DNA of 52,816 nt from Bacteroidales bacterium. GTDB taxonomy: Bacteria; Bacteroidota; Bacteroidia; Bacteroidales; Tenuifilaceae. Both the position numbers and the translations under genes were made by a program. Shown piece by piece: positions 391 to 24,782 of this stretch (within the stretch, counting starts at the first letter, position 1; each line of letters starts with the position of its first letter). Below the pieces are notes generated by a model. It did not search any database. It saw only the letters and a list, made by a program, of their open reading frames with translations, and had not been told where the DNA came from. The stretch covers positions 1-52,816 of the forward strand of contig JABFRB010000036.1 of assembly GCA_013141385.1 (NCBI GenBank), in the 5' to 3' direction.

Positions 391-1320
391 CTAATTACCC
401 CTAAAAATATAGACAAATCCTTTAGTGTTTTCGTAGAAACCATCAAGATCCTCTATTATGTAATAGTATATACCCTCTGGAAGATCTTTTCCATTATCGT
501 TTTTCCCATCCCATTTAATGTAGTAGGATTGATTTTGATAGACCAAAGAACCTGATCGTGAGAAAACTTTGAATACAAGCCTTGATAATCCACTGGTTGA
601 TACCTCAAAAAAGTCAAAGATATTATCGCCATTTGGAGTAAAAACATTTGGAACGTCTGTGAACTTAGCTTTATCTGTACCGGGATTTGGTAGAATATTA
701 AATTGTCTGGTAAATGATATTGTTTGGGCAGGATTTAAAATATTCCAAGCTTTAAGAGTTACTGTATTAATCCCACCGCTTTCGAATGTGTAGCGAATAT
801 TTGGATACTGACCGAAAGGGCTATCAAAGTCAATATTACTCAAGACAACTCCATTTACTGACCACTCAAAACGCATGTTAGCCAATAATAAATTGTCGTT
901 TTGGGGGAATAGAAAAGCACTTCTAAATATGCGGACATAAGTTGCTTTGGTATTTGTATCTAATCTATCGTAAAAAGCTGCAGAGTTTGCAAAAACTTTT
1001 CGGGTTATAGTTGAATCAATTGAGTTAATCTTGAATTTGAATGAAACATCAAAAGTATCAACAGTTCCATATGAGTGAATTGCAATTGAATCGGTGGTTG
1101 AAGTATTTCCATCACCAAAATCCCAACTAGTGAATTCTGATGGAGCAGATATAAGAGGTGTAAATTGAATTTTTGCCCCAGTGGTTGGATCTGGTACCTC
1201 TAAAAGTTTCCACTTGAACCCCAATGTATCAGCCGCAGTTTGGGCAAATAATGAATTGCTTGTACCAAAGCAGATCATTAAAACCAGAATGGTGATTCTA
1301 CGAAATCCGGTCTTTTGCAT
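391..1320 (-). CDS. Secreted PKD-domain protein with type B T9SS sorting domain (CHU_C)
   Basis: This 309-residue protein begins with a signal peptide (about residues 1-27, ending SLFAQ). A PKD-like region follows at about 45-115, with the typical WDFGDGNTSTTD motif. The C-terminal 85-90 residues form a gliding-motility-associated C-terminal domain, recognisable by the motifs VFTPNGDNIFD, KVFSRSG, WDGKNDNGKDLPEG and IYYYII. In Bacteroidota such domains direct export through the type IX secretion system and attachment to the cell surface. The protein is short for the family and has only one obvious PKD domain. It is therefore probably a small surface protein or adhesin-like factor whose ligand cannot be inferred. 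It is transcribed alone, 48 bases downstream of the AI-2E permease gene on the same strand. Confidence 0.85.
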   Translation of the reverse strand: MQKTGFRRITILVLMICFGTSNSLFAQTAADTLGFKWKLLEVPDPTTGAKIQFTPLISAPSEFTSWDFGDGNTSTTDSIAIHSYGTVDTFDVSFKFKINSIDSTITRKVFANSAAFYDRLDTNTKATYVRIFRSAFLFPQNDNLLLANMRFEWSVNGVVLSNIDFDSPFGQYPNIRYTFESGGINTVTLKAWNILNPAQTISFTRQFNILPNPGTDKAKFTDVPNVFTPNGDNIFDFFEVSTSGLSRLVFKVFSRSGSLVYQNQSYYIKWDGKNDNGKDLPEGIYYYIIEDLDGFYENTKGFVYIFRGN

Positions 1321-1368
1321 TTTATGCCATTTAGTTGTGTAAATATAGTGAAAGCGATTTATCCAAAT

Positions 1369-2469
1369 TTAAATTTTTCGAGTTAATTTCTCAACAACCC
1401 TGAATTTGTTAAAAAACTCTTTGGCAAATACCCTAATTACAGTATAAGCGGGTATTGCCAGTAGCATACCAAGTATTCCAGCAATGCTCCCAGCAATGAG
1501 TATTACAATAAATATTTCGAGAGGGTGCGCATTAACGCTACTCGAATAGATGAGTGGCTGAAAAAGTATATCATCAATAATACGAGTCACTACAAAAACT
1601 AATAGTATATAACCTATCATTGGTAGGAGTTGAGTGGAGAAATCGAGTTGCAGGTTTGTAGCAACCCCAATTAGTACACCCATAATTGCACCAGTCAATG
1701 GCCCCACATATGGTATAACATTCAGTATTCCTGCAACTAAACCAATTACAATTGCAGTATCAAATTTAATCCCAACAATCATTAACCCAATGGTATCTAG
1801 CGTCATTATACATAAACTCTGAATGATAATACCGATGAAATATCTCCTAAGAAGTTGGTTTACACTAACAAGAGCATGTTCTATCTGTTGCTCATATTTT
1901 TCGGGGAAAAGCATAAGTAATCCTTCGAAAAAAAGTTTCTCCTCCTTTAGGAAAAAAAATGTGATAAAGGATATTGAAAAAGCAGCAATAAAAAGGTTCA
2001 TCAGTAGATTTGCTGTGGAACTGAATAGGTCCGAAACCATTGATATGCTGAACATATGCGTTAGCTTATCTGATAAGAATTCTTTTACAGCGAAATTATT
2101 GGATGAGGGTAAGTATTCACGCACAAATTTTTCTATATCCGCAATAGGTTGCGAGAAATTATTGATCATCTGTGAGACATTTACCTCTCCAAGCTCGTTG
2201 GCTTGATTAATAACCAATGGGATCATTACTCTAAAAAAAGAATAGAATAGGATCCAAATCACAATCAATGCAACTGCAGCACCAAATGCCTTTGGGGGAT
2301 GCCATGATTTTATTTTTATTTTTGAGATGAGATCAACAATAGGTTTTCCCATCAGAGAAAGCACGGTCGATATTAGGATGTATGCAATTATTGACGAAAA
2401 ATACCAAAGTAAAAAGCCAATAATGGTTACTATTGCACCGATTATTATGTACTTAGCTAAAGTGTTCAT
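1369..2469 (-). CDS. AI-2E family transporter (putative permease, PF01594)
   Basis: A 366-residue polytopic membrane protein with about seven or eight hydrophobic segments. Two lie near the N-terminus (residues about 8-45), one at about 60-85, and a cluster spans about 155-180 and 205-340. The family signature GIINVIPYVGP-like loop is visible as AGILNVIPYVGPLTGA, and the C-terminal part IAGILGMLLAIPAYTVIRV is also typical. Members are called AI-2E or PerM permeases. Some export autoinducer-2, and others act as sodium/proton antiporters or have no known substrate, so the exact cargo is open. The length matches the family (340-370). It sits upstream of the CHU_C protein and divergently from the EamA permease, with a 129-base gap between them. 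Confidence 0.85.
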   Translation of the reverse strand: MNTLAKYIIIGAIVTIIGFLLWYFSSIIAYILISTVLSLMGKPIVDLISKIKIKSWHPPKAFGAAVALIVIWILFYSFFRVMIPLVINQANELGEVNVSQMINNFSQPIADIEKFVREYLPSSNNFAVKEFLSDKLTHMFSISMVSDLFSSTANLLMNLFIAAFSISFITFFFLKEEKLFFEGLLMLFPEKYEQQIEHALVSVNQLLRRYFIGIIIQSLCIMTLDTIGLMIVGIKFDTAIVIGLVAGILNVIPYVGPLTGAIMGVLIGVATNLQLDFSTQLLPMIGYILLVFVVTRIIDDILFQPLIYSSSVNAHPLEIFIVILIAGSIAGILGMLLAIPAYTVIRVFAKEFFNKFRVVEKLTRKI

Positions 2470-2598
2470 TACTAACTATTTTTCTCAAACCTACACCAAA
2501 TCTACTAAATTTCAAAATTGGATGTTTTATTTTTTATTTTTGATGATAGCTAAACTAGTTCCCTCCTTTGTTCTCTAATAGTTGTTTAAAAATCAATT

Positions 2599-3522
2599 AT
2601 GTTTAGTAATCATATCGGCGAGTACGCAGCATTATTAACAGCCATATTCTGGACTGTAACAGCATTAGCATTCGAATCTGCTAGTAAAAAGGTTGGTTCT
2701 CTTTCAGTGAACCTGATAAGACTTTGCATGGCCTTGGTTTTCCTAAGTATTTATTCATGGGTCTCAAGGGGATTGATTTTGCCTACGGATGCTACTAATT
2801 ATCAATGGGTATGGCTTTCCTTGTCTGGGTTGGTAGGATTTGTTTTAGGCGATCTTTTCCTTTTTAAATCCTATGAGGTAATTAGCGCAAGAATTTCGAT
2901 GCTGATAATGGCTCTTGCTCCACCCATTGCGGCTCTAATTGGTTGGGTTGCGCTAGGTGAACATTTAAACGCTAAGCAGGGAATAGGAATGTTACTTACC
3001 TTTGTTGGTATTGCACTTGTTATTCTAAAAAGAGAATTTAATCCAGATGAGGAGGTCTCCGATACAAATAATAAAAAGTTTAAGTTAAACTATCCTATCT
3101 CAGGTCTTTTGCTTGCATTTGGAGGTGCAGTGGGACAGGCAGGAGGTCTGGTCCTGAGTAAAATAGGGATGCAGAATTATGATGTGATAGCTTCTGTTCA
3201 AATAAGAGTAATAACAGGTATTATTGGTTTTGTAGCAATATTTTTCTTTTTAAATAGTTGGAAATCACTTCTAATCGCGATTAAAGACTCAAAAGCAATC
3301 ACAAAAATTTCCATTGGTGCTATTTTTGGCCCTTTTCTTGGTGTTTCGTTCTCGCTTTTATCCATAAAATATACTTCAACGGGTGTGGCATCTGCCATTA
3401 TGTCAATAGTGCCAGTTATAATAATTGCACCCGCTGTTTTAATCTTTAAGGAAAAATTTAATTCAAAAGAGTTGATTGGGGCTTTAATTACTGTTGGAGG
3501 GGTAATGTTGTTTTTCCTGTAA
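2599..3522 (+). CDS. EamA/DMT-family transporter
   Basis: A 307-residue integral membrane protein with ten predicted hydrophobic helices arranged as two EamA repeats (about residues 8-145 and 165-305), separated by a charged loop at 146-164. Typical features are the inner-repeat end IGWVALGEHLNAKQGIG and its second-half counterpart IIAPAVLIFKEKFNSKE, where a conserved Glu in a helix boundary marks the drug/metabolite transporter fold. Such proteins export amino acids or other metabolites. The substrate cannot be deduced here. The gene is monocistronic or is followed after about 70 bases by a lipoprotein gene on the same strand. Confidence 0.88.
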   Translation: MFSNHIGEYAALLTAIFWTVTALAFESASKKVGSLSVNLIRLCMALVFLSIYSWVSRGLILPTDATNYQWVWLSLSGLVGFVLGDLFLFKSYEVISARISMLIMALAPPIAALIGWVALGEHLNAKQGIGMLLTFVGIALVILKREFNPDEEVSDTNNKKFKLNYPISGLLLAFGGAVGQAGGLVLSKIGMQNYDVIASVQIRVITGIIGFVAIFFFLNSWKSLLIAIKDSKAITKISIGAIFGPFLGVSFSLLSIKYTSTGVASAIMSIVPVIIIAPAVLIFKEKFNSKELIGALITVGGVMLFFL

Positions 3523-3593
3523 ACTGTTTTTTATCTTAGAATTTGTTCTCATCACCTAAATGGGTTAACTTCGCTTATCATAAATCCCTGAAA

Positions 3594-4109
3594 ATGCGTA
3601 AGATATTATTTCTAATTCTCATTATTTCTCTTGTGTTTGCTTGTAGATCATTAAAAAATGGTTTGGTAACCGAAAGCAAGCAATCCGTAGCAGTGGACCA
3701 ATTTTTAGAGAAACCATTTGGTGAAAGCGAAACTATTGCATCTTTAAAAAAACAGTTTAGTAAAGATGTAAAACTTAAGCGAATGATACGCAGAAATAAA
3801 CACGATTCACAGAAGGTAGATACAATATTCCAGTTCTATTATCGAAAATCGGAGGTGTTTGTCTATAAAACTTATTTCAATAGGGAAATGCTTTTGGGTG
3901 GTGTTATAACCGATAACAAGTTTCCCTTGCTCAATGGAGTTGTTCCGGGAATGAGTAGGGATAATTTTTTTAAATCCTTTAAGGATTTAAATACTAATCA
4001 AGCAGATTCTATTAATTTGTATAGTAAAGAGTTAATGCGAAAATTTATTTTTATTTTCGATAAAAAAGGGGTTTTGAAAAAGATAGATTTTTCGTCTTAC
4101 GTTGATTAA
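3594..4109 (+). CDS. Hypothetical lipoprotein
   Basis: Family not recognised. An upstream TTG at 3543 would add 17 residues, but the ATG at 3594 is preferred because it places a textbook lipoprotein signal at the very start (MRKILFLILIISLVFAC, with Cys at residue 17 as the lipidated residue). The mature 155 residues are basic and hydrophilic in the first half (KLKRMIRRNKHD) and look like a small single-domain globular protein with alternating strands. It is probably anchored in the outer membrane or periplasmic face. It converges with the psd gene, with only four bases between the two stops. Confidence 0.7.
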   Translation: MRKILFLILIISLVFACRSLKNGLVTESKQSVAVDQFLEKPFGESETIASLKKQFSKDVKLKRMIRRNKHDSQKVDTIFQFYYRKSEVFVYKTYFNREMLLGGVITDNKFPLLNGVVPGMSRDNFFKSFKDLNTNQADSINLYSKELMRKFIFIFDKKGVLKKIDFSSYVD

Positions 4110-4113
4110 AGCG

Positions 4114-4776
4114 CTAAACTCTTTCCGCTACTTCAGCAACAATAGTTTGAGTACCAGTCACCTTTTGGTTAAGTTTAACTTTAATAACGGCATCAAGGGG
4201 TAGAAAAAGGTCAACCCTAGATCCAAATTTAATAAAACCTAACTGTTCACATTGATTGACGGGTTTACCTTCCTCTGCATAGCAAATAATCCTTCGAGCA
4301 ACAGCACCTGCTATTTGGCGCATCATAAGAGGCATACCATCTTTACGCTCAATGGCTACAGAGGTGCGTTCATTGTGTGTTGATGACTTTGGATGCCAAG
4401 CCAGATAGTAATTCCCAGGATGGTATTTGAAATATTTTACGGTTCCGTTTATTGGAAACCAATTAATATGAACATTCCAAACCGACATGAATATTGAAAC
4501 CTGAATACACTTCGATTTAATATATTCATTCTCTTCAACCTCTTCAATGGTCACAACAGTGCCATCTGCCGGGGCATATATGCAATTATTCTTTGTTTCA
4601 ATACTCCTTTTGGGCACTCTAAAGAAGCGCAAAATAAAACCTAGTAATAATAGTGACGGTAAAAGTATGACATAAACTCCTACCTTACCAAAAAAGAAAT
4701 AGATTATCAGATTGATAATCAGGGTTGCAAAAAATGCTACTGAAATTATTGTATATCCTTCTTTGTGAACTTTCAC
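4114..4776 (-). CDS. psd: Phosphatidylserine decarboxylase family protein
   Basis: This enzyme removes CO2 from phosphatidylserine to give phosphatidylethanolamine, the last step of the main phospholipid route. The 220-residue form is the short type found in Bacteroidota and archaea. It has two N-terminal membrane segments (about residues 9-50), the conserved PADGTVV motif at 69-75, the histidine-bearing MSVWNVHINWFP stretch at 97-108, and the autocatalytic processing site FGSR at 184-187. Cleavage there between Gly185 and Ser186 makes the pyruvoyl group. It lies 28 bases after cdsA on the same strand, which makes sense because CdsA supplies CDP-diacylglycerol upstream in the same pathway. 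Confidence 0.93.
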   Translation of the reverse strand: MKVHKEGYTIISVAFFATLIINLIIYFFFGKVGVYVILLPSLLLLGFILRFFRVPKRSIETKNNCIYAPADGTVVTIEEVEENEYIKSKCIQVSIFMSVWNVHINWFPINGTVKYFKYHPGNYYLAWHPKSSTHNERTSVAIERKDGMPLMMRQIAGAVARRIICYAEEGKPVNQCEQLGFIKFGSRVDLFLPLDAVIKVKLNQKVTGTQTIVAEVAERV

Positions 4777-4804
4777 GAGAATAAAATTAGATTATGAGAT
4801 TGAT

Positions 4805-5632
4805 TTATATTAACATCATTATTTTTAAGTAAGCAAAAACTATAGGTGCAGATAAAAAAACTGCATCAAACCTATCAAGCACTCCACCATGTCCTGGTAA
4901 AAACTTGCCCGAATCTTTTACGTCAATGCTGCGTTTGAACATCGATTCAATTAAATCACCAAAAACACCTATTATGGCACTGAGTAATCCGATTGCGATC
5001 CAGTGCGCAAAGTTAATATTAGAATAGTTAAGTGAAATGATCCACGCAACAATTGTTGTGAAAATTAATCCTCCTATAAAACCTTCCCACGATTTTTTTG
5101 GTGAAATCCTAGGAAATATCTTATGCTTCCCAATACTTACGCCAAAAAGATATGCACCAGTGTCGTTTGCCCAAATAAGTATAAAATAGCTTAAAAGTAT
5201 TTCATAAGAGAATGTATGTTGAAGTGTCTCCGCTTTAAAAGCGATGAGATTGAAAAGGGAAAGGGGAATGGCAATATAGAAAACTCCTAAAAGAGTGTAA
5301 GCTATATTATGAAAGGGTTGCTTGTGTTTACGGTAAAGTTCAAAGATAAATACACTGGTAATCAATGGTGTAAATCCAAGTAGATATATTGCTTCAATAT
5401 GCCCTGTTGCATATAAATATGTTCCGATGAAAACAGTAAGGCCAATTAGGAGGCCAAGCGAAAACTGTGGTTTTATTCTAGCCTTTAAACTTAAACTATA
5501 AAACTCATACATAGCGAGAATCAATATCCCTCCAATAACGATTAGGAAGGGAATTTCCCCAATAATCAGCGCACCAACAAGGCTAGTAACAAAGAGTATC
5601 CCACTAATTGTTCTTAAAACAAAATTGCTCAA
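4805..5632 (-). CDS. cdsA: Phosphatidate cytidylyltransferase
   Basis: A 275-residue integral membrane enzyme that makes CDP-diacylglycerol from phosphatidic acid and CTP, the branch point for phosphatidylethanolamine and phosphatidylglycerol. About eight hydrophobic helices are visible. The family signature is clear in the C-terminal third: SPKKSWEGFIGGL, then GDLIESMFKRSIDVKDSG, then LPGHGGVLDRFDA, with the conserved acidic and glycine residues intact. Length and order of motifs are standard. The first four bases overlap the end of the DUF2007 gene (5629-5632), which indicates translational coupling inside the ftsH-DUF2007-cdsA-psd run. Confidence 0.95.
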   Translation of the reverse strand: MSNFVLRTISGILFVTSLVGALIIGEIPFLIVIGGILILAMYEFYSLSLKARIKPQFSLGLLIGLTVFIGTYLYATGHIEAIYLLGFTPLITSVFIFELYRKHKQPFHNIAYTLLGVFYIAIPLSLFNLIAFKAETLQHTFSYEILLSYFILIWANDTGAYLFGVSIGKHKIFPRISPKKSWEGFIGGLIFTTIVAWIISLNYSNINFAHWIAIGLLSAIIGVFGDLIESMFKRSIDVKDSGKFLPGHGGVLDRFDAVFLSAPIVFAYLKIMMLI

Positions 5633-5835
5633 TTTTCAATATTCTTTAAGAGTTCTTTACTTTTTTCAGCTTCATCTTGGGATACATAAACTTCTACATC
5701 GCCAAATGAGGTATAGGATGAATCCTGTTTATTGATAACTACAGCTTCGATACCATTCTCAAACAAAACCTGTTTGGCAATTTCTGCCTGCCATGGTTTA
5801 TTGCTTGAGAAAATTGACACCCAATTATCTTCCAT
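5629..5835 (-). CDS. DUF2007 domain protein
   Basis: A 68-residue protein with the DUF2007 pattern: an initial strand (VSIFSSNKPWQAEIAKQ), a middle strand (GIEAVVINKQDSSY) and a final FGDVEVYVSQDEAEKSKELL segment. The family has a ferredoxin-like fold and is described as a putative signal-transducing or regulatory domain. No reaction is known. The gene starts one base after the ftsH stop and overlaps cdsA by four bases. It is a fixed part of this cluster, and its product may tune FtsH or the phospholipid enzymes, though that is only suggested by position. Confidence 0.82.
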   Translation of the reverse strand: MEDNWVSIFSSNKPWQAEIAKQVLFENGIEAVVINKQDSSYTSFGDVEVYVSQDEAEKSKELLKNIEN

Positions 5836-5836
5836 C

Positions 5837-7879
5837 CTAATTGTTATCTAGTTCCTTTTTTTCTCCGTTTTGATCTTTTTGAGCTTGAAGAATTTCCTTT
5901 TCAAACTCCTCCTCACGACTTAAAGATTTGCGCGGGCCAAATATAGTTACAAGATCTTCACTAAATATCACTTCACGTTCAAGAAGGAGCTCTGCGAGTT
6001 TGGTTAAACCCTCTTTATTCTCAATAAGTATTGTTTTTGAATGTGCGTAAGCATTATCAATTAATTCCTTTACCTCTTTATCAATCAATTCTGCTGTTTT
6101 TTCGCTGTAAGGTTTGGAAAATGAGTACTCGTTTTGTCCCGATGAATCGTAAAAACTAACATTTCCAGTTGCTTTACCCATACCAAAGTAGGCAATCATT
6201 GCGTACGCCTGTTTTGTAACTTTTTCGAGATCGTTGAGTGCTCCTGTTGATATTTTATTAAATGTAACTTCTTCTGAAGCTCTGCCTCCAAGGCCTGAAC
6301 ACATCTCATCAAATAGTTGCTCTGTGGTAGTTATCTGTCTTTCCTCAGGTAGATACCATGCTGCACCTAGAGAGCGACCGCGTGGTATAATTGAGACTTT
6401 AAGCAAGGGGTTTGCATGTTCAAGTAACCAGCTTACAGTAGCATGACCTGCTTCGTGATACGCAATTGTCCGTTTTTCGTCTAATGAAATAATCTTATTC
6501 TTTTTCTCAAGACCCCCAATTATCCTGTCGATAGCATCCAAGAAGTCCTGTTTTTGAACCGATTGCTTGTTTTTTCTTGCTGCAATAAGTGCGGACTCAT
6601 TACAAACATTAGCAATATCTGCACCTGAAAAACCTGGTGTTTGCTTTGCAAGGAATGTGATATCAAGTCCTTCCTCAAGTTTTAATGGTCGTAAGTGTAC
6701 TTTAAATATTTCGAGTCTCTCTTTACTGTCTGGTAGCTCAACATGGATTTGTCTGTCAAAACGTCCAGCACGCAATAACGCTCTATCAAGGATATCGGCA
6801 CGATTAGTTGCAGCCATTATTATTACACCTTGGTTCGAAGCAAAGCCATCCATCTCGGTGAGCAGCTGATTAAGTGTATTTTCACGCTCGTCATTTGACG
6901 AGAAATTGGAGTTTTTGCCTCTTGCACGCCCAATAGCATCAATCTCATCAATAAAAACGATACAAGGAGCTTTGTCTTTTGCTTGTTTAAAAAGGTCACG
7001 AACTCTTGATGCTCCAACCCCAACAAACATTTCAACAAAATCAGAACCTGACATGCTGAAGAATGGAACATTTGCTTCACCCGCAACTGCTTTTGCAAGT
7101 AATGTTTTACCAGTACCTGGAGGTCCAACGAGTAGTGCTCCTTTAGGGATCTTGCCACCTAAGTCGGTGTATTTTTTTGGATTTTTGAGGAAATCAACAA
7201 TTTCCATTACCTCAACCTTAGCTTCTTCTAAACCTGCTACATCCTTGAAATCTGTTCTTGAGGTAGATTCTCTATCGAAAAGTTGAGCTTTTGATTTTCC
7301 AACATTAAAAATATTCCCAGCACCACCACCTCCGCCACGGCTCATCCGGCGGAATATAAATATCCAGATACCAATTAGGATCAGAGGGAAAAGTAGCCAA
7401 CTGAGGATATCACTGAAGTAGTTTGGTCTTTCTTCGTACTGTGGGTATATTTTATCGGCTTCAGCTAAAGTAGTTTGGGCTTCAGAAAGTTGCTTTTCAA
7501 ATGTTTCAATTGAACCAATAGTGAAGTAGAAGTGGGGTCCTGTTTTAGGAACAGCATTAAAACCTTTTCCAAGTCTTTCAGCATATTTGGTAAGGTCTTT
7601 TTCTTTAATGAAAACCTCAACCTTTCCTTGATTGCGGACAACTATTAGTTTTGCAACCTCCCCCTTTGCTAACATCTGATTTTTAACCTCTTGCCAGTTC
7701 GATTCAATGGCATTTCGTCCGCTATAGAAAAAGTTAAGAAAGAAAATGGCTGCAATTATTAGGATGTAAACCCAGTACACATTGAATTTTGGGGTCTTCT
7801 TCACACTACCGCCATCGCCACCAAAAAAGGGGTCATTATTATCCTGATTCTTATCTTGTTTATTGTTTTTTTCGGCCAT
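5837..7879 (-). CDS. ftsH: ATP-dependent zinc metalloprotease FtsH
   Basis: Membrane-bound AAA+ protease that degrades misfolded membrane proteins and short-lived regulators. The 680 residues follow the standard order. Two membrane segments lie at about 34-52 and 157-176, enclosing a periplasmic domain, and the Walker A motif GPPGTGKT is at 252-259. The Walker B motif [11 protein letters not shown] is near 307, with the second region of homology ([21 protein letters not shown]) near 357, and the zinc-binding HEAGH is at 475-479. All catalytic residues are present. A glycine-rich linker follows the second membrane helix. It is 37 bases downstream of rsfS and one base upstream of the DUF2007 gene, so the four genes are probably cotranscribed. 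Confidence 0.97.
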
Positions 7880-8788: not shown

Positions 8789-8968
8789 CTAATGGCACAA
8801 TATAAGAAATGTTTCTCTAGTATAACAAGACAAACGCTGTATACAACAGTACGAATCTACTGGGCAATAATAACCATCTTCGGGATCACAAGCAATGCCT
8901 CCAGTGATGGCTTTTTGTTCGTTTTTGCTGAGTACTTTAACACCTGTTAATTCTTTTAAATTTTTCAT
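8789..8968 (-). CDS. Double-glycine leader, cysteine-rich precursor peptide (copy 1, promoter-distal)
   Basis: This 59-residue frame was read by hand. It opens with the leader MKNLKELTGVKVLSKNEQK and the processing-type pair Gly23-Gly24 (AITGG). The core holds six cysteines at residues 27, 35, 41, 42, 48 and 58, with a CP...YCC block shared with copy 2. Leaders of this kind are the hallmark of Bacteroidota natural-product precursors and are normally cut after GG during export by C39 peptidase transporters. The last dozen residues (TRETFLILCH) do not align with copy 2, so the tail may have diverged or be frameshifted. Two sister genes and the VKOR fusion protein lie upstream on the same strand. 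Confidence 0.82.
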   Translation of the reverse strand: MKNLKELTGVKVLSKNEQKAITGGIACDPEDGYYCPVDSYCCIQRLSCYTRETFLILCH

Positions 8969-9105
8969 AGCAAATTAAATTAAAGATTAAAATATAGCCT
9001 GATCATTTAAAGATACTCAGGGTTTGTGTCTTCTCTTCTCAAGGGAATACCTTATGTATCTTCGCTAAGTGTAATGGATTATTCTTTATCTCAAATATTT
9101 ATAAA

Positions 9106-9137
9106 GAAGTTATCTGAAATATTTTTCAAATAACTTC
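9106..9137 (-). terminator. Hairpin after peptide copy 2
   Basis: GAAGTTAT and ATAACTTC pair perfectly, and after one mismatch the inner TGAAA/TTTCA also pair, leaving a four-base loop. In the coding direction it starts 22 bases after the stop of copy 2 and is followed by an AT-rich, U-containing stretch. A weaker hairpin sits in the same place after copy 1 (8747-8769). Confidence 0.5.
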
Positions 9138-9158
9138 TAGTGAGTCTTAATTGGTTTA

Positions 9159-9332
9159 CTAACAAGGATATCCTTCGACTTTACAGATGTGATAATCAGC
9201 ACCTCTATGACAACAATAGGTACCCTCGGGACACCAATAACCTGGTTCTACACAAGCGTATCCGCCAATAATGGATTTTTGTTCGTTTTTACTGAGTACT
9301 TTAACACCTGTTAATTCTTTTAAATTTTTCAT
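9159..9332 (-). CDS. Double-glycine leader, cysteine-rich precursor peptide (copy 2, middle)
   Basis: A 57-residue peptide with almost the same leader as copy 1 (ending SIIGG, Gly23-Gly24) and a 33-residue core. Cysteines are at 27, 34, 40, 41, 50 and 57, six in all, so three disulfides are possible. The core also contains YWCPEGTYCCHRG, aromatic and glycine-rich like many disulfide-stabilised bacteriocins. A long hairpin at 9106-9137 follows the stop, consistent with a defined transcript end. ATG was chosen because the 24-residue leader is then identical in length in all three copies. Mature activity is unknown. A secreted antimicrobial or signalling peptide is the likeliest reading. Confidence 0.85.
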   Translation of the reverse strand: MKNLKELTGVKVLSKNEQKSIIGGYACVEPGYWCPEGTYCCHRGADYHICKVEGYPC

Positions 9333-9458
9333 AGCAAATTAAATTAAAGATTAAAATATAGCCTGATCATTTATAGACACTCAGGTTTTATGTCTACTCC
9401 TTGCAAGAGAAGAAGTTATTTCTTTACCTTAACTGTTAATCTGTTTTTTTCTGAATAA

Positions 9459-9490
9459 GAAACTATCAGGGAAAAGAGCCCGATAGTTTC
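9459..9490 (-). terminator. Hairpin after peptide copy 3
   Basis: GAAACTATC and GATAGTTTC pair, with a GGG/CCC extension after one mismatch and a seven-base loop. It begins nine bases after the stop of copy 3. No U run follows on the coding strand, so it may protect or process the RNA rather than end it, or act as a partial terminator. Confidence 0.4.
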
Positions 9491-9498
9491 TAGAATAC

Positions 9499-9663
9499 TT
9501 ACAAGGGAACACAACGACCATCCCCGTATTCATTAAAAATATAACAATACGAATAAGGAGGACATGTTGGATCTTCTATTGAACAACCCAAACCTCCTTT
9601 AATTAATTTTTGCTCATTTTTGGCGAGTACTTTAACGCCAGTTAATTCTTTTAAATTTTTCAT
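9499..9663 (-). CDS. Double-glycine leader, cysteine-rich precursor peptide (copy 3, promoter-proximal)
   Basis: A 54-residue peptide with the shared leader (MKNLKELTGVKVLAKNEQK) ending LIKGG at residues 20-24. The core has four cysteines at 27, 34, 40 and 51 and the sequence CPPYSYCY in place of the CP...YCC block. It is thus the most divergent core on the best conserved leader, a pattern expected when leaders are under selection for recognition and cores diversify. Its start is 85 bases after the stop of the C39-like/VKOR gene on the same strand, making it the first of three in transcription order. A hairpin at 9459-9490 follows the stop. Confidence 0.83.
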   Translation of the reverse strand: MKNLKELTGVKVLAKNEQKLIKGGLGCSIEDPTCPPYSYCYIFNEYGDGRCVPL

Positions 9664-9747
9664 AACAAATTAAATTAAAGATTAAAATATAACCTGATCA
9701 TTTAAAGACACTCAAGTTCTGTGTCTACTCCTCGCGAGAGAATATTG

Positions 9748-11385
9748 TTAATTATCTTGATTTATTAAGTTTAGTTCAGGTGTATGATTGTTGACTTTTT
9801 CAGTCTCCTCTTCAATAATATCATCGACAAAATTTACCAAGTCAATTCTATCATATTCTCTAGGAAATGATCTCCCGTTAACTAAAATCTCTGGGGTAAA
9901 GTTGATATTGTGCTGTTCGCACCACCCTTTCTCGTTTGTTAGTATGGGTATATATTCAGATTTGCTGGGCTCTCCCCATTTGAGTAACCAATCTTTAGGA
10001 AGTGTTGTGCTATAGATATCATGCATTGCATCTAGGCAAATTTGATCTCCATTAATGTTGTAGATTTCTAGTAATCGCCATGATATTTTTGCATCAATAG
10101 AGTCAAGATCGGCCTTTACATTAAATCGGATGATGATATTTATGCTCTTTCCCTTTATTTTTATTAGTTTTTCAACTAATCGATGAGCTTCTTTACAGAA
10201 TCCGCATAAAGGATTAGTTATCACAACAACTTCAAGAAGTGCGTTTTCTTTGCTGTCGCCCAAAACAATTTCATTAGTAATATTTATGCGCGTATTGATT
10301 TGATTAGAGTTACCAATAAGTGATTTGAAAATGTTATAGCTACGCTTAAATTTAAAATGCTCAATTCTTAACGTATTTAATTCTTGTTCCTTCTTAAATT
10401 TCGGTGAAATAAATCGCCAAAAAGCAAAGGAAATGAGGAAGCAAAGAGTCGTTATCAGTATGGCGTTTAGGTTGAACTGTAATTCATTGAAACGAAAATT
10501 GCTAAAAATAATAGCTATTGCTTGCAACCAAAGAATTGAAACAACACTCAAACAAAGCAAACACCACTTTCTAACAATTTTAAATTGATAAAAAATGGAA
10601 AAGAAGGTAAATGGTAGCGCAAGTAGAGAAATTATGATTAAGGGATAATTGCTATAGCCACTATTTTTCACTAAAATCCAGGATAGGATTAAGGATGCAA
10701 AATAGATAATTCCAACATCGCTTAATTTGAAATAACCGAAAAGATTAGCTCCTTTCGATTTTAATACTTCATCACAACTTGTTTTTTTATTACCCTCAGA
10801 GCAAAATTTACTGAGCACTTTGGAGCTAATACCTAAATCATGGTGTAGTATAAGGATACACACAGCAAGTCCCACTAACGATAAAAGAAAATGAACTGTT
10901 GGAAATAACGTGTTTTTATAAACAAAGAAGACCGTGATTAATGCAATGGTTGCTATTAAGATATTCCTGTTCGTAAAGTTTTCTTTCTTTGAATCTTGGA
11001 TGATTACTTTGTTATCTTCCTCAATAATCACTACAATTCCAGACCAAATATCTATAAACTCATTTTCAGATATTATCTTCTTTTTATTATCGTTATAAAA
11101 TATTTGAAGTCTTTGGTTAAGCCTACTAACCAATACAAATCCATTGAACTGCTCTTCCTTTATGAGGGCTAAAAAGTTACTTGGCAAAAGACCTAATGTT
11201 TCAGCATTTTTAGGAACTTCTAATGCGTAATTCTTTATCGAAAAATGATCAAGTACTCCTGTAATGGAATGTAAACTCGGGTATGTAGGGTGAGAGCGAA
11301 GTTGAAATTCCAACTCCTCAAAATCTATTTTAATTTTGTTGCTTTTTAAAAGCATTTTGACAACGGATACAAGGAGATCTTTCAT
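9748..11385 (-). CDS. Degenerate C39-like / VKOR / thioredoxin fusion membrane protein
   Basis: The 545 residues show three parts. Residues about 1-125 resemble the C39 peptidase fold of peptide exporters (FQLRSHPTYPSLHSITGVLDHF, then a hydrophobic strand, then WSGIVVIIEED), but the catalytic Cys near the N-terminus and the usual Gly-His before the strand (here NGFVLVS) are missing. Residues about 140-325 are a vitamin K epoxide reductase domain with several membrane helices, loop cysteines 195 and 204, and the CLLC motif at 275-278. Residues about 370-525 are a thioredoxin domain with CGFC at 394-397 and the cis-proline Thr-Pro at 497-498. VKOR-thioredoxin pairs make disulfides in exported proteins. 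Its neighbours, three cysteine-rich double-glycine peptides, are the obvious candidate substrates. Confidence 0.85.
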   Translation of the reverse strand: MKDLLVSVVKMLLKSNKIKIDFEELEFQLRSHPTYPSLHSITGVLDHFSIKNYALEVPKNAETLGLLPSNFLALIKEEQFNGFVLVSRLNQRLQIFYNDNKKKIISENEFIDIWSGIVVIIEEDNKVIIQDSKKENFTNRNILIATIALITVFFVYKNTLFPTVHFLLSLVGLAVCILILHHDLGISSKVLSKFCSEGNKKTSCDEVLKSKGANLFGYFKLSDVGIIYFASLILSWILVKNSGYSNYPLIIISLLALPFTFFSIFYQFKIVRKWCLLCLSVVSILWLQAIAIIFSNFRFNELQFNLNAILITTLCFLISFAFWRFISPKFKKEQELNTLRIEHFKFKRSYNIFKSLIGNSNQINTRINITNEIVLGDSKENALLEVVVITNPLCGFCKEAHRLVEKLIKIKGKSINIIIRFNVKADLDSIDAKISWRLLEIYNINGDQICLDAMHDIYSTTLPKDWLLKWGEPSKSEYIPILTNEKGWCEQHNINFTPEILVNGRSFPREYDRIDLVNFVDDIIEEETEKVNNHTPELNLINQDN

Positions 11386-11685: not shown

Positions 11686-11994
11686 TTAATTATATAGAAT
11701 TTGGAAGTATGAAGTGATTTTATTTTGAGAAATGCTTCTGCCACCTTTTATTTCTGACATCTCCTTGGCATCGAAGCCAAAGAAAATCCTGCCTTTTTGT
11801 GAGTACTTATAGGTTCTTTTGTAATGATCATAAATTACATCTATTCCCATCCCACGAAGTTGTTGTAGATGGTTTTGAAGAGTGCGTTCGCTTATCCCAA
11901 GTTTTTGTGCAAACTCGTCGGCGGTACCAGTGCATTCCTTTCCTATTAGAGAGTCTAAATGTTCAATGTAGGTTTTAAACTTCGTGAGTTCCAT
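11686..11994 (-). CDS. Small HTH regulator beside the peptide locus
   Basis: A 102-residue protein with an N-terminal winged-helix or HTH_11 type domain (residues about 5-65: ADEFAQKLGISERTLQNHLQQLRGMGIDVIYDHYKRTYKY). A short tail follows, containing FFGFDAKEMSEIKGGRS. Such single-domain regulators are often found next to double-glycine peptide genes in Bacteroidota. The tail stretch ending in IKGG at about 82-85 is oddly like the end of the peptide leaders in this locus (NEQKLIKGG). It probably controls the downstream fusion gene and peptides, from which it is separated by 300 bases. No effector domain is present. Confidence 0.7.
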   Translation of the reverse strand: MELTKFKTYIEHLDSLIGKECTGTADEFAQKLGISERTLQNHLQQLRGMGIDVIYDHYKRTYKYSQKGRIFFGFDAKEMSEIKGGRSISQNKITSYFQILYN

Positions 11995-24708: not shown

Positions 24709-24782
24709 GTGGGGGTAGCTCAGCTGGTTAGAGCATCAGATTGTGGTTCTGAGGGTCGTGGGTTCGAGCCCCATTCTCCACC
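24709..24782 (+). tRNA. tRNA-His (anticodon GTG)
   Basis: The cloverleaf reads with acceptor strand GTGGGGG pairing (with two G-U pairs) to TCTCCAC at 24775-24781. The D arm is TAGCTCAGCTGGTTAGAGCA, the anticodon stem TCAGA/TCTGA encloses TTGTGGT with anticodon 24743-24745 GTG, and the T arm is GTGGG TTCGAGC CCCAT. The base before position 1 is G (24708) and the discriminator is C, the pair required for histidine identity. CCA is not encoded. Confidence 0.97.

What the first reader, a model, noticed from the sequence alone, without database searches (positions are those of the whole stretch)
8789..11385. Self-contained locus pairing double-glycine cysteine-rich peptides with a C39-like/VKOR/thioredoxin fusion
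Three short genes share a 24-residue GG leader and have cores with six, six and four cysteines. They sit just downstream of a single protein joining a C39-like leader-recognition fold, a disulfide-generating VKOR domain and a thioredoxin domain. Seen: the gene order, leaders, cysteines, CLLC and CGFC motifs. Known: C39 domains bind GG leaders and VKOR-thioredoxin pairs oxidise exported cysteines. Inferred: the protein uses the leader to recruit each precursor and fold it with disulfides before or during export, a role normally split among several proteins. No RiPP modifying enzyme or exporter is in the window.
Basis: partly seen in the sequence, partly recalled or inferred. Interest (0 to 1): 0.88.

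Follow-up and report, generated by a model that had tools for sequence, protein, structure and literature searches.

The report
Leader-guided disulfide-making enzyme for small peptides
A membrane enzyme that appears to grab small cysteine-rich secreted peptides by their shared tag and lock them with sulfur bridges, probably inside the cell before export; it sits beside such peptide genes in many Bacteroidota, and none of this has been tested at the bench.

Summary
In detail: three genes (6, 6 and 4 core cysteines, shared 24-residue GG leader) follow a C39-like/VKOR/thioredoxin protein. The pairing is systematic. GG/AGS-leader peptides with >=4 cysteines lie at 44 of 54 fusion loci and 66 of 79 in a partly overlapping second set, against 1 of 40 control stretches and 0 of 33 C39 loci without the fusion. 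Cysteine number is even in 256 of 293 distinct peptides. The C39-like domain lost its catalytic residues but keeps the fold; the redox cysteines are conserved. New here: the model has six membrane helices, one more than a canonical VKOR-thioredoxin, and membrane charges reversed relative to 25 ordinary Bacteroidota VKORs. By the positive-inside rule all active sites face the cytoplasm. Best reading: a leader-guided disulfide synthase acting before a separate C39-ABC exporter cleaves and exports the peptide. The locus is not self-contained: the probable exporter is on another contig. Leader binding, oxidation and topology remain untested.

The parts
9748..11385 (-). C39-like / VKOR / thioredoxin fusion protein, 545 aa
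   Evidence: ORF; Pfam; AF2 model (mean pLDDT 89.5)
11023..11382 (-). degenerate C39-like (presumed leader-binding) domain, residues 2-121, without the catalytic Cys, His and Asp of exporter C39 domains
   Evidence: fold match to PCAT1 and ComA peptidase domains
10924..10977 (-). extra TM helix 1 (residues 137-154) ahead of the VKOR core; brings the total to six
   Evidence: helix; mean hydropathy 1.55 over 54 sequences
10513..10890 (-). VKOR core (residues 166-291) with loop Cys pair C195/C204 (10774-10803) and CLLC C275/C278 (10552-10563)
   Evidence: loop pair in 128 of 128 fusions, CxxC in 127 of 128 with one ambiguous
9787..10269 (-). DsbA/thioredoxin-like domain (residues 373-533) with CGFC (10195-10206)
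   Evidence: C394 and C397 invariant in alignment A5 of 54 sequences
9499..9663 (-). GG-leader precursor, 4-Cys core, first gene after the fusion
9159..9332 (-). GG-leader precursor, 6-Cys core with C-C-CC-C-C spacing
8789..8968 (-). GG-leader precursor, 6-Cys core with C-C-CC-C-C spacing
8887..9767 (-). three direct-repeat copies of 186 nt (8887-9072, 9251-9436, 9582-9767; 85% and 76% identical to the first) over upstream region plus leader codons: precursor genes probably arose by duplication
11686..11994 (-). possible part: 102-aa HTH protein 300 bp upstream whose C-terminal tail resembles a GG leader; a homologue lies just before the fusion in L150

Best explanation
The 545-aa protein is a leader-guided disulfide synthase for secreted Cys-rich peptides. 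Its catalytically dead C39-like domain binds the double-glycine leader of each precursor (inferred from fold, lost catalytic residues and linkage). Its DsbA-like domain (CGFC) oxidises the core cysteines and is re-oxidised by the fused VKOR core (C195/C204, CLLC), which hands electrons to a quinone (general knowledge of VKOR-Trx pairs; inferred here). Six TM helices put the C39-like and thioredoxin domains on the same side, and the charge pattern makes that side the cytoplasm, so disulfides are made before export (inferred). A separate C39-ABC exporter with HlyD, here probably the pair on contig C16, then removes the leader and exports the cross-linked peptide.
For: Linkage: GG/AGS peptides with >=4 Cys at 44 of 54 fusion loci against 1 of 40 control stretches (stricter first pass 35 of 54 against 1 of 40), at 66 of 79 in a second, partly overlapping set, and at 0 of 33 C39 loci without the fusion, where 27 GG-type ORFs were found. 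Same strand in 109 of 109 and 213 of 214, downstream in 101 of 109 and 201 of 214. Even Cys number in 256 of 293. Leader-blind test: 38 of 51 and 61 of 78 against 10 of 175 control ORFs. Leaders more alike than cores in 834 of 837 within-locus pairs. Catalytic Cys in 1 of 128 fusions against 78 of 78 exporters; fold like PCAT1 and ComA peptidase domains. Topology: more K/R on the CxxC side in 107 of 128 fusions, 16 tied, 5 opposite; in 25 canonical VKORs 0, 1 tied, 24 opposite; 17.5 against 0.96 K/R per protein, same sense in 54 of 54; six TM helices. Exporter: L150 has fusion, peptides, a C39-ABC 87% and an HlyD 64% identical to the C16 pair.
Against: No biochemical data. Topology rests on hydropathy, AF2 and the positive-inside rule; the 128 fusions form one clade and the 25 controls include near-duplicates, so counts are not independent. 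10 of 54 and 13 of 79 loci gave no peptide under the pattern. The C41 fusion sits by grasp-with-spasm genes with peptides of 0 and 2 Cys. Six loci with another exporter type (five Aquimarina records and L217) gave no >=4-Cys peptide on the fusion strand, and the two I looked into have GG peptides of 0-2 Cys, so substrates are not always disulfide-rich. 37 of 293 peptides have odd Cys numbers. 21 of the 33 C39 control loci had no GG-type ORF at all and six were shorter than 16 kb. The peptide AF2 model is poor (mean pLDDT 65.1). Foldseek's 50 listed matches include no VKOR structure, though a sequence profile finds them. The bacterial cytoplasm is generally reducing.
Confidence: 0.68

Rival explanations
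1. Canonical orientation: the C39-like domain is cytoplasmic while VKOR and thioredoxin are periplasmic (helix 1 does not span), so the precursor is caught inside and oxidised as it emerges.
For: Usual VKOR-Trx geometry (general knowledge); helix 1 has the lowest mean hydropathy of the six segments (1.55 against 1.60-2.16).
Against: AF2 gives six TM helices. It would place about 17.5 K/R outside and 1 inside, opposite to 24 of 25 canonical VKORs of the phylum.
Confidence: 0.17
2. Everything periplasmic (N-out, C-out): the C39-like domain acts on something other than the uncleaved precursor, such as the exporter or a released leader.
For: Six TM helices allow it.
Against: A domain of about 137 residues with no evident signal peptide (inspection only) would have to cross the membrane; charges oppose it; leader cleavage by C39-ABC exporters is cytoplasmic (general knowledge).
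Confidence: 0.05
3. A disulfide isomerase, reductase or redox chaperone that keeps precursors reduced until export rather than an oxidase.
For: The same Cys motifs could run in reverse; the cytoplasm is reducing.
Against: VKOR fused to a CxxC domain is an oxidising pair in the cases I recall; even Cys counts fit fully bonded products.
Confidence: 0.06
4. Hitch-hiking: a general redox enzyme that happens to lie in peptide gene clusters.
For: It occurs in varied contexts, including grasp-with-spasm and LanC-like neighbours.
Against: The association is with >=4-Cys GG peptides and absent from C39 loci without the fusion; the C39-like domain is retained across the family.
Confidence: 0.04

Closest known systems
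Bacteroidetocins, class IIf bacteriocins (PMC6671954, passages seen)
   Same: Bacteroidota GG-leader peptides with Cys pairs, gel behaviour consistent with disulfides, a thiol oxidoreductase and a peptidase-ABC exporter in the locus; deleting the oxidoreductase or the five-TM protein attenuates toxin
   Different: Leaders of 15-16 aa; oxidoreductase and five-TM protein are separate genes; the text held has no occurrence of VKOR, thioredoxin or C39
Canonical VKOR-thioredoxin fusions (e.g. 3kp9, 4nv5)
   Same: Two Cys pairs in VKOR plus a CxxC thioredoxin; profile match
   Different: No C39-like domain or extra N-terminal helix; opposite charge pattern in phylum relatives
Degenerate C39-like domains of toxin exporters (PMC6363468, abstract and passages seen)
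   Same: C39 fold without catalysis, proposed to recruit substrate
   Different: There part of an ABC exporter; here fused to a redox enzyme
Aeropyrum pernix VKOR, disulfide formation in two compartments (Hibender 2017; title seen only in the reference list of PMC12453122, text not held)
   Same: Apparent precedent for VKOR activity towards the cytoplasm (recalled)
   Different: Archaeal, no leader-binding domain (recalled)
Sublancin BdbB and pediocin PedC (recalled; 'PedC/BrcD' named in a passage of PMC13289728)
   Same: Disulfide enzyme dedicated to a GG-leader bacteriocin
   Different: Separate proteins, act outside, no leader-binding domain (recalled)

Membership tests
VKOR family (PF07884) | profile match and two conserved Cys pairs | tested here: met
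   55.1 bits against 27.5; loop pair in 128 of 128, CxxC in 127 of 128 with one ambiguous
Canonical periplasm-facing VKOR-Trx | active-site loops on the K/R-poor (outer) side | tested here: not met
   more K/R on the CxxC side in 107 of 128 fusions against 0 of 25 canonical
Canonical periplasm-facing VKOR-Trx | five TM helices (recalled from solved structures) | tested here: not met
   six in the AF2 model; no experimental topology
C39 peptidase | catalytic Cys-His-Asp | tested here: not met
   Cys in 1, His in 0, Asp in 11 of 128 fusions at the aligned columns, against 78, 72 and 78 of 78 exporters
Non-catalytic C39-like domain | C39 fold without catalysis | tested here: met
Non-catalytic C39-like domain | binds the substrate leader | not testable with these tools
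   needs a binding assay or co-structure
Double-glycine leader peptides | leader ending in GG (or GS/GA) with hydrophobic residues at -4 and -12 | tested here: met
   over 292 aligned leaders I or V at -4 in 258 and L at -12 in 245; positions as described for LahT
Bacteroidetocin | leader of 15-16 aa | tested here: not met
   24 aa in the window
Bacteroidetocin | sequence similarity to bacteroidetocins A/B | not tested
   their sequences were not in the passages seen
Grasp-with-spasm | TIGR04192/TIGR04193 neighbours | tested here: inconclusive
   seen only at C41 (L020): TIGR04193 265.9 bits (cut-off 175), TIGR04192 167.8 bits (cut-off 230); not searched for in the window

The most novel reading that the evidence does not exclude
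A bacterial, leader-guided cytoplasmic disulfide synthase: an inverted VKOR fused to its own substrate-recognition domain that folds many different Cys-rich, partly knottin-like peptides inside the reducing cytoplasm before export, making disulfide installation a leader-directed modification across Bacteroidota.
Probability: 0.55. Interest if true: 0.88.

Novelty: new variant of a known kind. Interest (0 to 1): 0.77.

Why it matters
Disulfides are normally made outside the cytoplasm by enzymes that read no substrate tag. A single protein that recruits by leader and oxidises inside the cell would make disulfide bonding a leader-directed modification, as lanthionine formation is. It would explain how Bacteroidota, some of which are said to lack general disulfide machinery (stated for Bacteroides in PMC6671954), make Cys-rich peptides, and could serve as a production tool. 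The fusion is also a marker for small peptide genes: 293 distinct ones were collected here.

Tried and rejected
Chance small ORFs: rejected by random-stretch, C39-only and leader-blind controls. Active protease: rejected. A radical SAM modifying enzyme on this contig: no PF04055 match there. Homology of the peptides to solved structures: nothing credible (best E 3.3). Peptide fold: AF2 too weak. Rfam: only a tRNA in the window. Promoter scan: 21 found, 17.4 expected by chance. Mobility: eight plasmid records of PLSDB carry relatives. Literature: ten searches of the held open-access library showed no description of this fusion with GG peptides; some searches listed only 20 of 26, 71 and 346 papers, and most subscription papers are not held, so this does not prove absence.

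How counts were made. Peptides seen by eye but missed by both patterns (for example L061/L199, L074, L222) were not counted. The two locus sets overlap by at least three loci (L059/L175, L060/L182, L061/L199, judged from contig lengths). The one positive control stretch is L110, in a fusion-carrying genome. Of the 33 C39 control loci, 29 have an open frame of 700 aa or more at the C39 match; only 13 exporter genes from them passed my pattern, 2 of 13 with a hit; two fusions were skipped there for lack of room. Canonical VKOR controls: from the 30 loci that one search returned (of more matches) I left out three fusions (L237, L248, L256), two unclear loci (L233, L249) and two wrong-frame ORFs. 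Fusion ORFs under 480 aa were left out of the 128. One search scored only three candidates per genome.
Full report
WHAT IS THERE. On the minus strand, 9748-11385 encodes a 545-aa protein; three small genes follow at 9499-9663, 9159-9332 and 8789-8968. The three products share a 24-residue leader ending in GG and have 4, 6 and 6 core cysteines. Pfam finds Peptidase_C39 at 2-125 and VKOR at 166-291 above cut-off and a thioredoxin below it. NCBIfam gives the window protein nothing above a cut-off; 23 of 54 relatives match a general VKOR model, and NCBI annotates relatives on plasmids as 'vitamin K epoxide reductase family protein'. The peptide genes look like duplicates: three 186-nt repeats cover upstream region and leader codons.

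THE SAME GENOME. It has four VKOR matches, all in frames of 545-578 aa. The C11 copy has two GG Cys-rich genes just downstream and the C5 copy one with six cysteines. The C41 copy lies beside a SPASM protein above the grasp-with-spasm cut-off and an ATP-grasp protein below it. Three more peptides of the family are orphans, two on C26 and one on C16. Three C39-ABC exporters lie on C2, C16 and C22, none on the window's contig.

THE ASSOCIATION. A profile of the four fusions found relatives in 41 of 395 genomes of the phylum (three candidates scored per genome, so copy numbers are lower bounds). I fetched 50 stretches; with the window and three more from its genome that makes 54 loci. A first leader pattern found GG peptides with >=4 Cys in 35 of 54, against 1 of 40 stretches elsewhere in fusion-carrying genomes. 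After reading the misses I widened the pattern to GG/AGS leaders: 44 of 54 against 1 of 40 (Fisher p 7e-16). All 109 peptides are on the fusion's strand, 101 downstream. A second set from named genomes (79 loci, at least three shared with the first) gave 66 of 79, with 213 of 214 peptides on the same strand. As a sharper control I took 33 loci with a C39 match but no fusion: they held 27 GG-type ORFs, none with >=4 Cys; 21 of the 33 had no GG-type ORF at all and six were shorter than 16 kb. A test that ignores leaders found a >=4-Cys small ORF within 600 bp downstream of 38 of 51 and 61 of 78 fusions, 10 of 175 control ORFs and 2 of 13 exporters. The p values ignore shared ancestry.

THE PEPTIDES. 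Of 293 distinct peptides, 256 have even Cys numbers (142 with six, 80 with four). Leaders are more alike than cores in 834 of 837 within-locus pairs. Over 292 aligned leaders, -4 is I or V in 258 and -12 is L in 245, which fits the groove contacts described for LahT, while -7 is Q in 208. 28 of 142 distinct six-Cys cores have C-C-CC-C-C spacing, against a mean of 2.3 and a maximum of 8 in 200 shuffles. A model of one precursor was poor.

THE FUSION. At the columns of the exporter catalytic residues, Cys is present in 78 of 78 exporters and 1 of 128 fusions, His in 72 of 78 and 0 of 128, Asp in 78 of 78 and 11 of 128 (that these are the catalytic residues is general knowledge). An AF2 model from 54 sequences has mean pLDDT 89.5. 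Foldseek matches it to PCAT1, the PCAT1 and ComA peptidase domains and DsbA-like proteins; no VKOR structure is among the 50 listed, but a sequence profile of the family finds solved VKORs. The VKOR loop pair is present in 128 of 128 fusions and the CxxC in 127 with one ambiguous; the thioredoxin CxxC is invariant in the 54 of alignment A5.

TOPOLOGY. The model has six long hydrophobic helices: 137-154, 160-183, 221-242, 247-271 (kinked), 276-294 and the start of 306-347. The first precedes the VKOR match. With six spanning helices the C39-like and thioredoxin domains share a side with both VKOR Cys pairs. Membrane-flanking K/R average 17.5 on that side and 0.96 on the other, in the same sense in 54 of 54. 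As control I took 25 Bacteroidota VKORs without a C39 domain: 24 have more K/R on the loops opposite the CxxC, one ties. In the fusions 107 of 128 have more on the CxxC side, 16 tie and 5 go the other way. The fusions form one clade (support 0.924, midpoint root), so this may be a single inversion, and the controls include close relatives of one another. I infer cytoplasmic active sites.

EXPORT. A C39-ABC exporter is near the fusion in 34 and an HlyD in 30 of the 54 loci (identified by inspection), and in 53 and 48 of the 79 (by similarity to the own-genome proteins). The window lacks them. A relative, L150, has the fusion, at least eight peptides, a C39-ABC and an HlyD together; the last two are 87% and 64% identical to the pair on C16 of the window's genome. 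I take C16 as the likely exporter.

PRIOR KNOWLEDGE. Bacteroidetocin loci pair a GG peptide (4 Cys in A and B) with a thiol oxidoreductase, a five-TM protein and a peptidase-ABC exporter, and deleting the oxidoreductase or five-TM gene attenuates toxin (PMC6671954, passages). Degenerate C39-like domains as substrate recruiters are discussed for toxin exporters (PMC6363468, abstract and passages). In PMC10352776, PMC8939145, PMC13289728, PMC4555120 and PMC12453122 I saw only passages found by term; none of those passages describes this fusion. The inverted-VKOR precedent (Hibender 2017) I know by title and memory only. So the parts are known; the fusion as a widespread partner of Cys-rich GG peptides, and its apparent inversion, I found in none of my ten searches.

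LIMITS. No experiment supports leader binding, oxidation, topology or peptide activity. What the mature peptides do is unknown; bacteriocin-like is the obvious guess.

Noticed in passing
window 11686-11994 (-); L150 3596-3907; L025 4821-5162; also L217, L219, L220, L221, L224, L226: Small HTH proteins near fusion or exporter genes whose C-terminal tail resembles a GG leader; possibly regulators that mimic the leader.
   Followed up: partly
L020 (G000 C41) 957-7108: A fusion copy beside grasp-with-spasm maturase genes and GG peptides with 0 and 2 Cys.
   Followed up: partly
L065, L066, L069, L070, L071, L074, L077: One to six Cys-free GG peptides with short glycine-rich cores, divergent from the fusion, in loci of one genus.
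   Followed up: no
L257 5908-13113: Parabacteroides distasonis plasmid with the fusion, a 6-Cys AGS-leader peptide, a LanC-like protein, glycosyltransferases and a peptidase-ABC exporter.
   Followed up: partly
L217, L219: Loci whose fusion lies with GG peptides of 0-2 Cys and a C2-type exporter.
   Followed up: no
L023 3851-4272; L024 6864-7043: Orphan 6-Cys GG peptides of the same family on contigs of the window's genome without a VKOR match.
   Followed up: no
L083, L099, L106, L107: Fusion copies split into two ORFs; left as they are.
   Followed up: no
window 24709-24782 (+): A tRNA gene.
   Followed up: no
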